Shown one piece after another: positions 46,852 to 51,438 of a stretch of 64,000 nt of DNA; position 1 is the first letter of the stretch; every line of letters starts with the position of its first letter. Source of the DNA: Ilyobacter polytropus DSM 2926 (lineage in GTDB: Bacteria; Fusobacteriota; Fusobacteriia; Fusobacteriales; Fusobacteriaceae). Location of the stretch: the NCBI RefSeq assembly GCF_000165505.1, contig NC_014632.1:1550001-1614000 (forward strand), read 5' to 3'. The notes beneath the pieces are model-generated. The model did no database searches and was not told the DNA's origin. It saw only the letters and a list, made by a program, of their open reading frames with translations. A program made the position numbers and the translations under genes.

Positions 46852-47943
46852 TCAAAACATAAGCAATGGATTTATAGCCTTTAGGTTAAATCTAAGTTCA
46901 TAATAAAGACTAGGTTTACCGTCTGTAGACATTCCGAGTATTCCTATGTCCTGTCCTTTTTTGACTATGCTTCCTACCTTTACATAATGACTTATTAGAT
47001 TTCCGTAGATACCTATCATGTTGTAGCCATAGTCAACCATTACCACTTTACCTAGACCCTGAAATTTCCCGGCATAGATAACCTTTCCAGATGCTGCTGA
47101 CTTTACCCTGCTTCCCAGGCTAGAGGCTATCTCTATACCACTGCTTGTGACATTTCCTTGTTTTTTCTGTCCAAAAGTAACAGCATATCTGCCGTTTAAC
47201 GGTTTTTTCATTTTTCCTATTTTTGATTTTGCAGTTGAAATATCTATATTTTTTACCTTTCTTGCTCTTTCTATTATTATTCTATCTATCTCTTTCGCTA
47301 TATTTTTTTTCTTAATCTCAAGAGTTGAGATATTTTTTTTGTGATATATCTCTTTTTTGTTGAGCTGAGCAATAAGAGTATCTTTCTCTCTTTTTTTCCT
47401 TTCACCCTGTCTCTCTTTTTGTGCTAGGATATTTTTAAGTCTGGTCTGTTCTCTTCTGTCTTTCTCTATATCATTTTTTACCAAATCTATATCTTTTTGA
47501 ACTACCCTTATATGCTCTAGGGTTTCAAGATCAGCATATAAGAGCTCTTTAAAGTTCCTCTTTTTGCTTTGGACATAATCTTTCTCAGTTTTATTTTTTT
47601 TCACCCTGTTCCAGGCCTCTAGTTTAGCGTTATATTCTCTGTTCTTTATCTTCAGTTCTTCAGAACTGAAATTTAAATTTCTTTTACTGTAATCTATTTT
47701 TTTTGACAAACTCGATATCTTTATCAAAAGTTCTTTTTTTTCGCTTTCAATCTTTTTTAATTCATTTTCTAGATCACTTATCTGTTTTTTTATGAGTTCT
47801 CTGTTTTGACCTATTACTTTTATCTCTTTGCTGCTTTTTTTTATTCCCTTCTCTATGTCTCCCATCTTTTTTTTCATGTCAGAAAGCTGGTCTCCATATG
47901 AAATTGAAGAGATTATAAAGAAAAAAACCACCCATTTTTTCAC
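46852..47943 (-). CDS. EnvC-like murein hydrolase activator
   Basis: 363 residues: signal peptide (KKWVVFFFIISSISYG), a long Lys/Glu-rich coiled coil (about 20-240), and a C-terminal LytM/M23 fold (LNGRYAVTFGQK, GSRVKSAASGKVIYAGKFQGLGKVVMVDYG, GSIVKKGQDIGILG). The zinc ligands are lost: GIEIAS replaces HxGxD and LYYELR replaces HLHFE, as in EnvC-type activators that lack activity themselves. GTG start; its first bases overlap the ftsX stop. It is the natural periplasmic partner of FtsX. Confidence 0.85.
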   Translation of the reverse strand: MKKWVVFFFIISSISYGDQLSDMKKKMGDIEKGIKKSSKEIKVIGQNRELIKKQISDLENELKKIESEKKELLIKISSLSKKIDYSKRNLNFSSEELKIKNREYNAKLEAWNRVKKNKTEKDYVQSKKRNFKELLYADLETLEHIRVVQKDIDLVKNDIEKDRREQTRLKNILAQKERQGERKKREKDTLIAQLNKKEIYHKKNISTLEIKKKNIAKEIDRIIIERARKVKNIDISTAKSKIGKMKKPLNGRYAVTFGQKKQGNVTSSGIEIASSLGSRVKSAASGKVIYAGKFQGLGKVVMVDYGYNMIGIYGNLISHYVKVGSIVKKGQDIGILGMSTDGKPSLYYELRFNLKAINPLLMF

Positions 47944-48812
47944 TGATTATCACCTTTAACTCTGTATATTTTTCTTGAAACAAACGGAAATACGCAGATA
48001 ATTACAAGAATAGTCACAAGGGCTAAAACAAGCATCTGTTCTGTACTACTTAATATATAGTCTCTGTCATAATTTATAAACTCTTTTCTGAAAACTTCAT
48101 AAAAATTTAGAAATATAAGCGTTCCTGTAAAGGCGGCCCCTGTAAATATGGCATCACTTATAAAATAATAAGGTTTAAGAACATTTTTTTTATTATCTCC
48201 CATATATATCTTCGAACTTATATCCCTGCTGTGTTTTACTATATTTGTATGAAGAAGATTAAATATTATTAAAACCACAGGCAGAAAAGCCCCTAGGAAA
48301 AAATATCTTATAAATGTTTGATTTTTGGCTATTCTTTTATTTAAATTTTGTAACTGTTCATTGTCTACATATACCTCTTTTATAAAGTTATCTTCCTTAT
48401 CTAGATTTTGCCTTAATAGTTCTAGTTTATCATACCCGTCAAAAGTAATTGAAATGCTGTCAGAAAGTGGATTGTTTCCCTTAGGAAGCCTTATTCCTAG
48501 GTCATCTTCTAGCTCCCTCAACTCAACCTCTTTAGATTCATACTTCATATGTCTCACTTCTGGCAACTCAAGTAGTTTCCCCTCAAATTCATTTATTGAT
48601 TTTTCGTCTGGATTTCCCTTAAGATATACCCTTACTTTATAATTGTCTTTTAAATTTTCAGTATTCTGATGTAGATTTAAAATAACTCCTCCAACTGCAT
48701 TTAAAACTATAAAAGCAGAAATAAGAGTAAAAAAATTCATTCTATAACACTTAAAATCTCTATCTATTATTTCATCTAATTCATTCAAAAAGCTTTTTAA
48801 CCATTTAAACAT
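47940..48812 (-). CDS. ftsX: Cell division protein FtsX
   Basis: 290 residues from the ATG at 48812, which overlaps the ftsE stop by 8 bases (a TTG at 48833 is a weaker choice). The cytoplasmic N-terminus is followed by TM1 (NFFTLISAFIVLNAVGGVIL), a periplasmic loop of about 120 residues (YKVRVYLKGNPDEKSINEFE...ISITFDGYDKLELL), and three C-terminal helices (FFLGAFLPVVLIIFNLL onward). The topology is that of FtsX, which passes a signal to EnvC outside the membrane. Confidence 0.9.
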   Translation of the reverse strand: MFKWLKSFLNELDEIIDRDFKCYRMNFFTLISAFIVLNAVGGVILNLHQNTENLKDNYKVRVYLKGNPDEKSINEFEGKLLELPEVRHMKYESKEVELRELEDDLGIRLPKGNNPLSDSISITFDGYDKLELLRQNLDKEDNFIKEVYVDNEQLQNLNKRIAKNQTFIRYFFLGAFLPVVLIIFNLLHTNIVKHSRDISSKIYMGDNKKNVLKPYYFISDAIFTGAAFTGTLIFLNFYEVFRKEFINYDRDYILSSTEQMLVLALVTILVIICVFPFVSRKIYRVKGDNQ

Positions 48813-49440
48813 TTTTAATAACACCCTCTCCAAGTATATTTAAGTCTTTTGGATATTTTTCCAAAATAGTAACGTCATTTGTGATATACATTATACCTAA
48901 TCCATTTTTACAAAGTTCTTCTAATAGTAAAAATACTTTTTTTATAGTTTGATCATCCAACCCTCTGTGAAAATCATCCATCACAAGATAAGAAGGTTCT
49001 GAAGACAATGCTCTTGCTAAACTGAAATAGTGCTTCTCCTCTTGAGTTAGATTTTCCAAAAATTCATCTTTTTTGTGCGCAAGATCAAAAAATTCCAAGA
49101 CCTCTAGTGACAATTTACTGGCCTCTTTATCGGTATAGTCCCTCAAATTAAGGTAATATTGTAAATTTTCCATAATAGTTTTATAACTTATAAATTTATA
49201 ATCATCGTAAGTTATTCCAAGTTTCCTAATAATAATTTTACATCCTGCCTTCGAAGATGTAAAATCTTCCCCTCCGATTATTATTGTCCCTTTTTTAGGA
49301 AGAGCGACTTTAGTCAGCATTTGTAAAAATAAATTCTTCTCATTTTTATCTTTATAAGAAAGATAAGAGAATTCACATTTATTTAATTCTAAATTAACTT
49401 CAGTTTTTCCATTTAAATTTACATTTACAAATTTAACCAA
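48805..49440 (-). CDS. ftsE: FtsE-like ABC protein with degraded ATPase motifs
   Basis: 211 residues of ABC-ATPase fold, adjacent to ftsX and envC. The Walker A GxSGAGKST is replaced by YLSYKDKNEKNLF; the signature LSGGEQQR by LTQEEKHYF; and Walker B reads YLVMDDFHRGLD, where DEP would be expected, leaving Asp in place of the catalytic Glu. FARAL-like LARALSSEPS and YITND (H-loop His replaced) remain. The frame is intact and other regions (GTIIIGGEDF, TIMENLQYYLNLRDY) align well, so it is a conserved pseudo-ATPase and not a sequencing error. TTG start, GGAGG 7 bases upstream; first gene of an eight-gene operon. Confidence 0.85.
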   Translation of the reverse strand: MVKFVNVNLNGKTEVNLELNKCEFSYLSYKDKNEKNLFLQMLTKVALPKKGTIIIGGEDFTSSKAGCKIIIRKLGITYDDYKFISYKTIMENLQYYLNLRDYTDKEASKLSLEVLEFFDLAHKKDEFLENLTQEEKHYFSLARALSSEPSYLVMDDFHRGLDDQTIKKVFLLLEELCKNGLGIMYITNDVTILEKYPKDLNILGEGVIKNV

Positions 49441-49489
49441 GATAAAACCTCCAAAAAAATTTTAGCATCTCTGATTTTTTTCACTATTT

Positions 49490-49610: not shown

Positions 49611-50540
49611 CTATAAATTCTCTTTTATTACTGACACTATTTTTTCAGCAGTAAGTTCGTACTTCTCGAGAAGTTCCGCTCCCTTTCCACTTTGTCCAAA
49701 CTTGTCGTAAATTCCTATTTTCTTCACCTTTGTAGGATGAACTTCTGAGAGAAACTCAGAAACTGCAGAACCTAATCCTCCTATTACAGAGTGCTCTTCA
49801 GCAGTAACTATAAACTTAGTTTCCTTAGCTGCTTTTAAGATAGCTTCACCATCTAGAGGTTTTACTGTTCCTACATTTAGGACTCTTACTGAAACTCCAT
49901 CTTCTGCAAGTATTTCAGCAGCTTTCATAGCTTCTGCCACCATAAGTCCAGTAGCTGCCACTGTTACATCTGCTCCATCTTTTGCTGTATTTATTACACC
50001 TATTTGAAAATCATAAGTTTCTTCATCAAAAAGAACAGGGACATCTAATCTTCCAAGTCTTAGGTATATAGGCCCATCATAATCTACAGCAGCCTGAACC
50101 ATCTTTTTAGTTTCCACAGCATCTGCAGGTGAAAGAACTACCATTCCAGGTATAGCTCTCATAAGTGCTATATCTTCTACAGACTGGTGTGATCCACCGT
50201 CTTCTCCCACTGATATACCAGCATGAGTAGGAGCTATTTTTACATTTAATTTTGGATATGCCACTGTGTTTCTGATCTGCTCAAATGCTCTTCCAGCTGC
50301 AAACATAGCAAATGTAGAAGCAAATGGTATCTTACCGCAAGTAGACATACCAGCAGCTGTACCGATCAAATCAGCCTCTGCTATTCCAACATTTATATGT
50401 CTTTTTGGGAATTCTTTTTGAAACATTGCAGTCTGAGTAGATTTAGAAAGATCTGCATCTAAAACAACAACATTTTCATTTATTTTTCCAAGTTCAACAA
50501 GAGCTTCTCCATAAGCTTTTCTTGTAGATTTTTTTGCCAT
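49611..50540 (-). CDS. Transketolase, C-terminal subunit
   Basis: 309 residues covering the pyrimidine-binding and C-terminal domains of transketolase (KINENVVVLDADLSKST, GIAEADLIGTAAGMSTCGKIPFASTFAMFAAGRAFEQIRN, HAGISVGEDGGSHQSVEDIALMRAIPGMVVLSPAD with the catalytic Glu in GIAEAD). It works with the N-terminal subunit encoded 30 bases upstream in the same operon. Split transketolases of this sort are common in anaerobes. GGAGG precedes the ATG. Confidence 0.94.
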   Translation of the reverse strand: MAKKSTRKAYGEALVELGKINENVVVLDADLSKSTQTAMFQKEFPKRHINVGIAEADLIGTAAGMSTCGKIPFASTFAMFAAGRAFEQIRNTVAYPKLNVKIAPTHAGISVGEDGGSHQSVEDIALMRAIPGMVVLSPADAVETKKMVQAAVDYDGPIYLRLGRLDVPVLFDEETYDFQIGVINTAKDGADVTVAATGLMVAEAMKAAEILAEDGVSVRVLNVGTVKPLDGEAILKAAKETKFIVTAEEHSVIGGLGSAVSEFLSEVHPTKVKKIGIYDKFGQSGKGAELLEKYELTAEKIVSVIKENL

Positions 50541-50570
50541 CTGTTCAAACCTCCAATTTATAATTTATGA

Positions 50571-51404
50571 TTAATCGAGAATTTCTTCTACTTTTTCAAG
50601 TTCTTTTACAGCTATTTCAGTTTCCTCAGCTGTAGGGGCAACACCGTGGAATCCACATACATTTTCCATGAAAGATACACCCTTACCTTTTGTAGTTTCT
50701 GCTATTATAACTGTAGGCTTACCTTTGCACTCTTTAGCTTTTTCCAAAGAATCCAAAATCTCTTCAAAACTATGTCCGTCAGCCTTTATAACATTCCATC
50801 CAAATGACTCCCACTTTTTATCAAGAGGAGCGACACCCATTATTTCGTCTACATTTCCATCTATCTGAAGATTATTATAATCAACAAATGCGCAGATATT
50901 ATCAAGCTTGTAGTGAGCAGAAGTCATAGCAGCTTCCCATACCTGACCTTCTTGTAATTCTCCGTCTCCCATCAAAACATAAGTTCTGTAGTCTTCCCCT
51001 GAAATTTTAGCTGACAATGCCATTCCGTTTGCTACCGAAAGTCCTTGCCCTAATGAACCTGTAGATATTTCTATCCCAGGTACCTTTTTCATATCAGGAT
51101 GTCCTTGTAATATTGAACCGTACTGTCTCAATGTCCCTAGAAGTTCTCTGTCAAAATAACCTTTTTCAGCCAAAACTGCATAAAGAACAGGTGCAGCATG
51201 ACCTTTAGAAAGAACAAATCTGTCTCTTCCTTCCATTTTTGGATTTTTAGGATCTACATTCATCTCAGAAAAATAAAGTGTTGTAACTATATCCGCCGCA
51301 GAAAGAGACCCCCCCGGATGTCCAGATTTTGATTTACAAATCATCTGAACGATATCTTTTCTAACTTGTGTTGATTTTTCTTTTAAGAGTTTAATATCTG
51401 CCAT
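50571..51404 (-). CDS. Transketolase, N-terminal subunit
   Basis: 277 residues from the ATG at 51404 (AGGAG upstream), the thiamine-diphosphate-binding half of transketolase: KSGHPGGSLSAADIVTTLYF, KGHAAPVLYAVLAEKGYF, ISTGSLGQGLSVANGMA, the GDGELQEGQVWEAAMTSAHYKLDNICAFVDYNNLQIDG ThDP motif and ETTKGKGVSFME. Together with its partner it transfers two-carbon units in the pentose phosphate pathway. First gene of the pair, with a strong promoter at 51439-51468. Confidence 0.94.
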   Translation of the reverse strand: MADIKLLKEKSTQVRKDIVQMICKSKSGHPGGSLSAADIVTTLYFSEMNVDPKNPKMEGRDRFVLSKGHAAPVLYAVLAEKGYFDRELLGTLRQYGSILQGHPDMKKVPGIEISTGSLGQGLSVANGMALSAKISGEDYRTYVLMGDGELQEGQVWEAAMTSAHYKLDNICAFVDYNNLQIDGNVDEIMGVAPLDKKWESFGWNVIKADGHSFEEILDSLEKAKECKGKPTVIIAETTKGKGVSFMENVCGFHGVAPTAEETEIAVKELEKVEEILD

Positions 51405-51438
51405 TTCCATCTCCTTTCAATTTTAACTTTCTTTAGTA

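What the first reader, a model, noticed from the sequence alone, without database searches (positions are those of the whole stretch)
48805..49440. FtsE homologue with loss of Walker A and ABC signature in an intact ftsE-ftsX-envC operon
The P-loop (YLSYKDKNEKNLF), signature (LTQEEKHYF), Walker B Glu (DDF) and H-loop His have all changed, yet the frame is open, the remaining fold is recognisable and the operon with ftsX and envC is preserved. Known FtsEX needs ATP hydrolysis to drive EnvC. A pseudo-ATPase could mean constitutive or differently driven activation of cell-wall hydrolases in this lineage.
Basis: partly seen in the sequence, partly recalled or inferred. Interest (0 to 1): 0.75.

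Follow-up and report, generated by a model that had tools for sequence, protein, structure and literature searches.

The report
ATP-dead FtsE kept with FtsX
In a marine fusobacterium, the motor subunit of a widely conserved cell-division machine has lost the parts that bind and burn ATP, yet natural selection still preserves it; relatives show all stages from a working motor, through a dead one, to none at all, so here the machine that switches on cell-wall cutting seems to have been weaned off ATP.

Summary
The ORF at 48805-49440 (-) is an FtsE orthologue with no Walker A glycines or Ser/Thr, no Q-loop Gln, no signature GG and no switch His, in an intact ftsE-ftsX-envC operon. It is not a sequencing error or a recent mutation: two congeners share it, and so do three related genera (one is Propionigenium maris). 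All carry the same P-loop replacement ('EK' for 'GK'), pointing to one old inactivation. The gene is under purifying selection (dN/dS 0.11-0.21, upper bootstrap limits <0.35). AlphaFold2 gives a confident NBD fold closest to FtsE, and no other FtsE was found in the genome. Among 79 fusobacterial ftsX loci, only 2 have an intact ftsE beside them, 16 a degenerate one, 57 none and 4 cannot be judged. The degenerate state forms a paraphyletic grade below the large FtsE-less clade, so inactivation preceded gene loss. FtsX keeps its coupling-helix motif where FtsE survives, dead or alive, and loses it where FtsE is gone in that family. Best reading: a nucleotide-independent docking/recruitment subunit of FtsX-EnvC. 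That Fusobacterium lacks ftsE beside ftsX was published in 2018; I found no report of the pseudo-ATPase stage. The mechanism is untested at the bench.

The parts
48805..49440 (-). pseudo-ATPase FtsE, 211 aa, TTG start
49448..49452 (-). Shine-Dalgarno-like GGAGG before the ftsE start
   Evidence: read from sequence
49327..49365 (-). former Walker A, YLSYKDKNEKNLF; only the P-loop Lys (K35) is left
49189..49215 (-). former Q-loop ITYDDYKFI: Gln replaced by Asp (D79), aromatic groove-floor residue kept (Y78, aligned with S. pneumoniae F87)
   Evidence: residue role from PMC7468199
49024..49050 (-). former ABC signature LTQEEKHYF: GG replaced by QE, E and K kept
48970..48987 (-). Walker B LVMDDF: catalytic Glu is Asp here but Glu in both congeners
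48874..48885 (-). former H-loop ITND: switch His replaced by Asn
47940..48812 (-). ftsX (290 aa); ATG overlaps the ftsE stop by 8 bases
   Evidence: FtsX_ECD 41.7 bits and FtsX 27.7 bits, both above gathering
48198..48227 (-). FtsX coupling-helix motif RDISSKIYMG between TM2 and TM3 (FtsE docking site in other bacteria)
   Evidence: docking role from PMC7468199 and PMC11139282
46852..47943 (-). envC: coiled coil plus LytM/M23 domain with degenerate zinc ligands (activator type)
   Evidence: Peptidase_M23 76.3 bits; alignment with E. coli EnvC
49611..51410 (-). transketolase gene pair upstream (49611-50540 and 50571-51410); same tkt-ftsE-ftsX order in several Clostridia with intact FtsE

Best explanation
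The gene encodes a true FtsE orthologue turned pseudo-ATPase: it folds as an ABC nucleotide-binding domain and, most likely, still docks on the FtsX coupling helix and helps place FtsX-EnvC at the division site, but cannot bind and hydrolyse ATP in the ABC manner. EnvC recruitment and amidase activation would then not be gated by an FtsE ATP cycle; timing would come from recruitment, from FtsX itself or from another division signal. SHOWN here (computation): orthology, loss of all nucleotide motifs except the Lys and the Walker B Asp, age and inheritance of the loss, purifying selection, absence of another FtsE, retention of the core of the docking groove and of the FtsX coupling-helix motif, later loss of the whole gene in relatives that keep FtsX-EnvC. 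INFERRED: no ATP binding, physical docking on FtsX, role as recruitment subunit, the alternative trigger.
For: Motif loss fixed in 3 congeners and genera g5, g10 and g13, all with 'EK' in place of the P-loop 'GK'. Orthology: TIGR02673 is the best family by a clear margin for all six fusobacterial FtsE tested; all ftsX-linked FtsE fall apart from 42 unlinked ABC ATPases at a 96* branch; tkt-ftsE-ftsX order shared with Clostridia. Selection: dN/dS 0.11-0.21 between congeners and 0.14 in g13, 95% bootstrap limits at most 0.34; FtsX and EnvC about 0.05-0.08. Fold: pLDDT 89.6, pTM 0.87; top VIA-align rows are FtsE (8hd0 Z 25.3, 2.9 A over 210 residues), LolD within about 1 Z. Docking side: ATP motifs lose 3.8 BLOSUM units against intact FtsE, the rest 1.2, the groove floor R3 (residues 86-96 without Q88) 0.36; R3 is 7th of 188 windows. 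FtsX coupling-helix motif: kept in 11 of 11 assessable Fusobacteriaceae FtsX with (pseudo-)FtsE, 0 of 46 without. No other FtsE in this genome. FtsX-EnvC acts in division without an adjacent ftsE in F. nucleatum (PMC5915739).
Against: No binding or localisation data exist. The coupling-helix correlation covers few independent losses and fails in family f4, where 11 of 13 assessable FtsE-less FtsX keep the motif. The wider docking region R2+R3+R4 is no better kept than the rest of the protein. dN/dS is two to four times that of FtsX. The invariant Lys and Walker B Asp leave a little room for residual nucleotide contact.
Confidence: 0.6

Rival explanations
1. Slowly decaying remnant: the protein no longer matters, and the frame is kept mainly because ftsX translation is coupled to it through the 8-base overlap.
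For: Overlap with the ftsX start; faster protein evolution than FtsX and EnvC; the whole gene is lost in the large sister clade.
Against: dN/dS upper limits below 0.35; no internal stop in the 16 degenerate copies, whose origin predates several genera; confident fold; relatives express ftsX directly after transketolase without any ftsE.
Confidence: 0.13
2. Mixed motor: the pseudo-FtsE pairs with another, intact ABC ATPase of the cell (LolD or MetN type) on FtsX, so the complex still runs on ATP.
For: An ABC ATP-binding protein (HMPREF0397_1681) came down with FtsX in F. nucleatum and its authors proposed it as the FtsE (PMC5915739). Many intact ABC ATPases in this genome.
Against: FtsE works as a homodimer where structures are known (PMC7468199); no unlinked ATPase groups with FtsE; the coupling-helix motif disappears from FtsX in the FtsE-less Fusobacteriaceae, unexpected if another NBD docked there.
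Confidence: 0.12
3. Residual nucleotide sensor: the degenerate site still binds a nucleotide weakly through the kept Lys and Walker B Asp and switches FtsX without hydrolysis.
For: P-loop Lys invariant in all 18 rows; Walker B Asp nearly so. P. aeruginosa and E. coli FtsEX are reported to be activated by ATP binding (PMC11139282).
Against: In the S. pneumoniae structure the main-chain nitrogens of G40-K43 wrap the beta-phosphate (PMC7468199); those glycines are gone, the position before the Lys is Glu, which should repel phosphate, and the Ser/Thr, Gln, signature GG and His are lost as well.
Confidence: 0.12

Closest known systems
Canonical FtsEX-EnvC (E. coli, P. aeruginosa, V. cholerae)
   Same: Gene order ftsE-ftsX, FtsX with extracellular domain and coupling helix, EnvC with coiled coil and catalytically degenerate LytM domain, NBD fold of FtsE.
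   Different: FtsE nucleotide-binding and hydrolysis motifs are lost; envC lies in the same operon.
FtsX-EnvC of Fusobacterium nucleatum (PMC5915739)
   Same: Same phylum and operon (ftsX-envC-nadK); no working FtsE beside FtsX; FtsX and EnvC needed for division.
   Different: F. nucleatum has no ftsE gene there; here a pseudo-FtsE is present and under selection, and FtsX keeps the coupling-helix motif.
ATPase-dead FtsE mutants of E. coli (FtsE D162N; PMC7343993)
   Same: FtsEX that recruits EnvC without hydrolysing ATP; cell separation still supported when NlpD is present.
   Different: Laboratory point mutant that blocks septal synthesis through FtsA; here a naturally fixed loss across genera that reaches ATP-binding residues too.
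Degenerate nucleotide sites of heterodimeric ABC proteins (general knowledge)
   Same: ABC NBD fold with changed signature or Walker residues, still functional.
   Different: Those keep Walker A and pair with one working site; here a presumed homodimer would have both sites dead.

Membership tests
FtsE (by descent) | Adjacent to and upstream of ftsX in an operon | tested here: met
   8-base overlap with ftsX; same order in 17 other fusobacterial loci and in Clostridia
FtsE (by descent) | Best family is FtsE and it groups with FtsE in a tree | tested here: met
   TIGR02673 best; FtsE rows separate from 42 other ABC ATPases at a 96* branch, with long branches among the degenerate rows
FtsE (by descent) | Score over the TIGR02673 equivalog cut-off (264.85 bits) | tested here: not met
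   103.4 bits; but the two fusobacterial FtsE with intact motifs also miss it (249.5 and 218.9)
FtsE ATPase (working ABC NBD) | Walker A GxxGxGK[ST] | tested here: not met
   YLSYKDKNEKNLF; Lys only
FtsE ATPase (working ABC NBD) | ABC signature LSGGE/Q | tested here: not met
   LTQEEK
FtsE ATPase (working ABC NBD) | Q-loop Gln and H-loop His | tested here: not met
   Asp79 and Asn188
FtsE ATPase (working ABC NBD) | ATP binding and hydrolysis | not testable with these tools
   needs purified protein
ABC nucleotide-binding-domain fold | NBD fold | tested here: met
   AF2 pLDDT 89.6; FtsE chains top the list with Z about 25
FtsX | Extracellular domain plus permease C-terminal domain | tested here: met
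   FtsX_ECD and FtsX above Pfam gathering
EnvC-type amidase activator | Coiled coil plus LytM domain lacking zinc ligands | tested here: met
   alignment with E. coli EnvC; family cut-off NF008644 not reached (73 of 270 bits)
FtsEX complex | FtsE docks on the FtsX coupling helix | tested here: inconclusive
   indirect only: motif kept with FtsE and groove floor conserved, but family f4 does not fit

The most novel reading that the evidence does not exclude
In Fusobacteriota the FtsX-EnvC amidase switch has been freed from ATP: FtsE first became an ATP-free pseudo-ATPase that holds FtsX in an activation-competent state, and was later discarded with its docking helix, leaving an ABC-transporter-like machine with no motor.
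Probability: 0.35. Interest if true: 0.78.

Novelty: new variant of a known kind. Interest (0 to 1): 0.62.

Why it matters
FtsEX-EnvC is a textbook case of mechanotransmission by ATP. A natural series from intact FtsE through a selected pseudo-ATPase to no FtsE, with FtsX and EnvC retained throughout, makes it directly testable which part of FtsE function is ATP-dependent and which is scaffolding. It also suggests how Fusobacterium, where FtsX and EnvC are needed for division and biofilm formation, came to work without an FtsE gene beside ftsX.

Tried and rejected
Sequencing error or frameshift: rejected, the frame is open and shared with congeners. Second FtsE elsewhere: searched with TIGR02673 and with both intact fusobacterial FtsE; the best unlinked hit scored 161 bits against 218 between the two intact FtsE, and the unlinked proteins fall in MetN, LolD-like and other ABC groups. 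Recent mutation: rejected. One clade of pseudo-FtsE genera: rejected by the AU test, p 0.0067. Better conservation of the whole R2+R3+R4 docking region: not found, only R3. A general rule that the FtsX coupling motif is lost with FtsE: holds in f1, not in f4. Paper searches for a pseudo-FtsE, for Ilyobacter FtsE, and for loss or absence of FtsE found nothing beyond the F. nucleatum paper; that library holds open-licence papers only.

Full report
WHAT IS THERE. The window lies in a 3.13 Mb genome of three contigs (2,046,464 and 961,624 bases plus a small one). On the minus strand two transketolase genes are followed by ftsE (48805-49440), ftsX (47940-48812), envC (46852-47943), nadK and recN. 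ftsE starts with TTG after a GGAGG, and its stop overlaps the ftsX ATG by 8 bases. A strong terminator-like hairpin follows the transketolase gene (49610-49575) and a promoter-like site lies before ftsE (49518-49490); promoter-like hits in the region are no more frequent than in shuffles.

THE OBSERVATION. The product is FtsE by best family (TIGR02673, 103 bits; next best 68), but every nucleotide motif is altered: Walker A YLSYKDKNEKNLF, Q-loop Gln to Asp, signature LTQEEK, H-loop His to Asn. What remains is the P-loop Lys, invariant in all 18 fusobacterial FtsE, and the Walker B Asp. The Glu-to-Asp change in Walker B is not shared by the two congeners.

HOW OLD AND HOW WIDE. An FtsX profile over the 98 fusobacterial genomes held, with the neighbourhood of 79 ftsX loci read, gave: intact ftsE beside ftsX in 2 genomes (families f2 and f3), degenerate ftsE in 16, none in 57, and 4 where the contig ends too close to judge. 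Of the degenerate copies, 12 are in family f1 (g1, the window's genus, 3; g5 1; g10 1; g13 7) and all carry 'EK' in place of the P-loop 'GK'. The other 4 are in f4 genus g21, with a different lesion: a two-residue P-loop deletion that leaves GKS, the signature GG replaced, the His lost, but Gln and Walker B Glu kept. So inactivation happened at least twice. An rpoB tree puts the f1 pseudo-FtsE genera as a grade below a clade of genera without ftsE; holding them together as one clade is rejected (AU p 0.0067). Hence the ancestor of that FtsE-less clade most likely passed through the pseudo-ATPase stage. Genus g3 lost ftsE separately on this tree.

NO REPLACEMENT FTSE. The two intact fusobacterial FtsE score 218 bits against each other and at most 161 against anything else in 18 genomes, the window's included. 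In a tree all ftsX-linked FtsE lie apart from 42 unlinked ABC ATPases at a 96* branch; the degenerate rows have very long branches, which is a caveat for that tree.

STILL SELECTED. dN/dS between congeners is 0.11-0.21 with 95% bootstrap limits at most 0.34; 0.14 in g13; 0.06-0.08 in g21, where dS is partly saturated. FtsX and EnvC lie at about 0.05-0.08. The protein is thus constrained, though less than its partners. AlphaFold2 on 18 rows gives pLDDT 89.6, pTM 0.87; solved FtsE chains head the Foldseek and VIA-align lists (8hd0 Z 25.3, rmsd 2.9 A, 210 residues), with LolD, MetN and MacB close behind, so the fold alone does not single out FtsE.

DOCKING ON FTSX. In S. pneumoniae the FtsX helix EIQIMRLVGA between TM2 and TM3 binds FtsE, in a groove shaped by FtsE residues 71-79, 86-96 and 101-115, with F87 at its floor (PMC7468199). 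In the f1 pseudo-FtsE the stretch 86-96 without the catalytic Gln is among the best kept of all (loss 0.36 BLOSUM units; ATP motifs 3.8; rest 1.2; rank 7 of 188 windows), with Phe/Tyr at position 87. The full three-region groove is not specially conserved, and g21 has Asp at 87. On the FtsX side, the motif [DE][IV]x6G is present in 11 of 11 assessable f1 FtsX with a pseudo-FtsE and in none of 46 without one; most of the latter that were inspected have a 3-residue deletion there. In f4 the motif is kept in 11 of 13 assessable FtsX without ftsE, so the rule is not general. These are correlations over few independent events.

REST OF THE PATHWAY. EnvC aligns over its length with E. coli EnvC, has the same kind of degenerate LytM domain and keeps the helical segment that contains the restraining arm in E. 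coli (arm from PMC12505981). An Amidase_3 protein is present in all 8 genomes checked, FtsZ in all 9 checked. FtsA is present in f1, f2 and f3 genomes but not found above MreB-like scores in the 10 f4 genomes checked. In E. coli the essential need for FtsE hydrolysis is to release a block on septal synthesis through FtsA, while EnvC-dependent separation can do without hydrolysis if NlpD is present (PMC7343993). Loss of FtsA in f4 would remove that need; in f1 FtsA is still there, so it cannot be the whole story.

MECHANISM. I commit to a nucleotide-independent docking and recruitment subunit (confidence 0.6). Shown: descent, motif loss, age, selection, lack of another FtsE, partial conservation of the docking surfaces. 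Inferred: no nucleotide binding, physical docking, recruitment role, other trigger for EnvC. Rivals are a remnant kept by translational coupling, a mixed NBD dimer with another ATPase, and a residual nucleotide sensor.

AGAINST WHAT IS KNOWN. Wu et al. 2018 (PMC5915739) reported that the F. nucleatum ftsX locus lacks ftsE, that FtsX and EnvC interact and are needed for division, and that an ABC ATP-binding protein co-purified with FtsX. The pseudo-ATPase stage, its fixation across genera, the order inactivation-then-loss and the matching change in the FtsX helix were not found in the papers searched. By descent this is FtsE; by the defining features of an FtsE ATPase it is not one.

Noticed in passing
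L112 (contig G055:C25), L092, L093, L096 (family f4, genus g21): Separate degeneration of FtsE: P-loop shortened by two residues (e.g. GRKGKS), signature GG replaced, H-loop His lost, Walker B Glu kept; dN/dS about 0.06-0.08.
   Followed up: partly
family f4 genomes G055, G094, G056, G058, G052, G089, G087, G039, G040, G088: No FtsA found above MreB-like scores although FtsZ is present in those checked; genera g17, g18 and g26 also lack a recognisable FtsX.
   Followed up: partly
G000:C1:1482274-1483209 (outside the window, same genome): A second FtsZ-like locus, 296 bits, with one in-frame TGA; pseudogene, error or read-through not examined.
   Followed up: no
G039:C1:54702-55658 and 426649-427365: Two further FtsZ-like stretches interrupted by several TAA codons beside an intact FtsZ.
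   Followed up: no
L237, L240, L256, L260, L264, L269: Clostridia share the order transketolase-ftsE-ftsX with Fusobacteriota, with intact FtsE.
   Followed up: partly
L111 (G097, family f6): The most distant fusobacterial genome with an FtsX has ftsX-envC-nadK but no ftsE upstream, so a further independent loss is possible.
   Followed up: no
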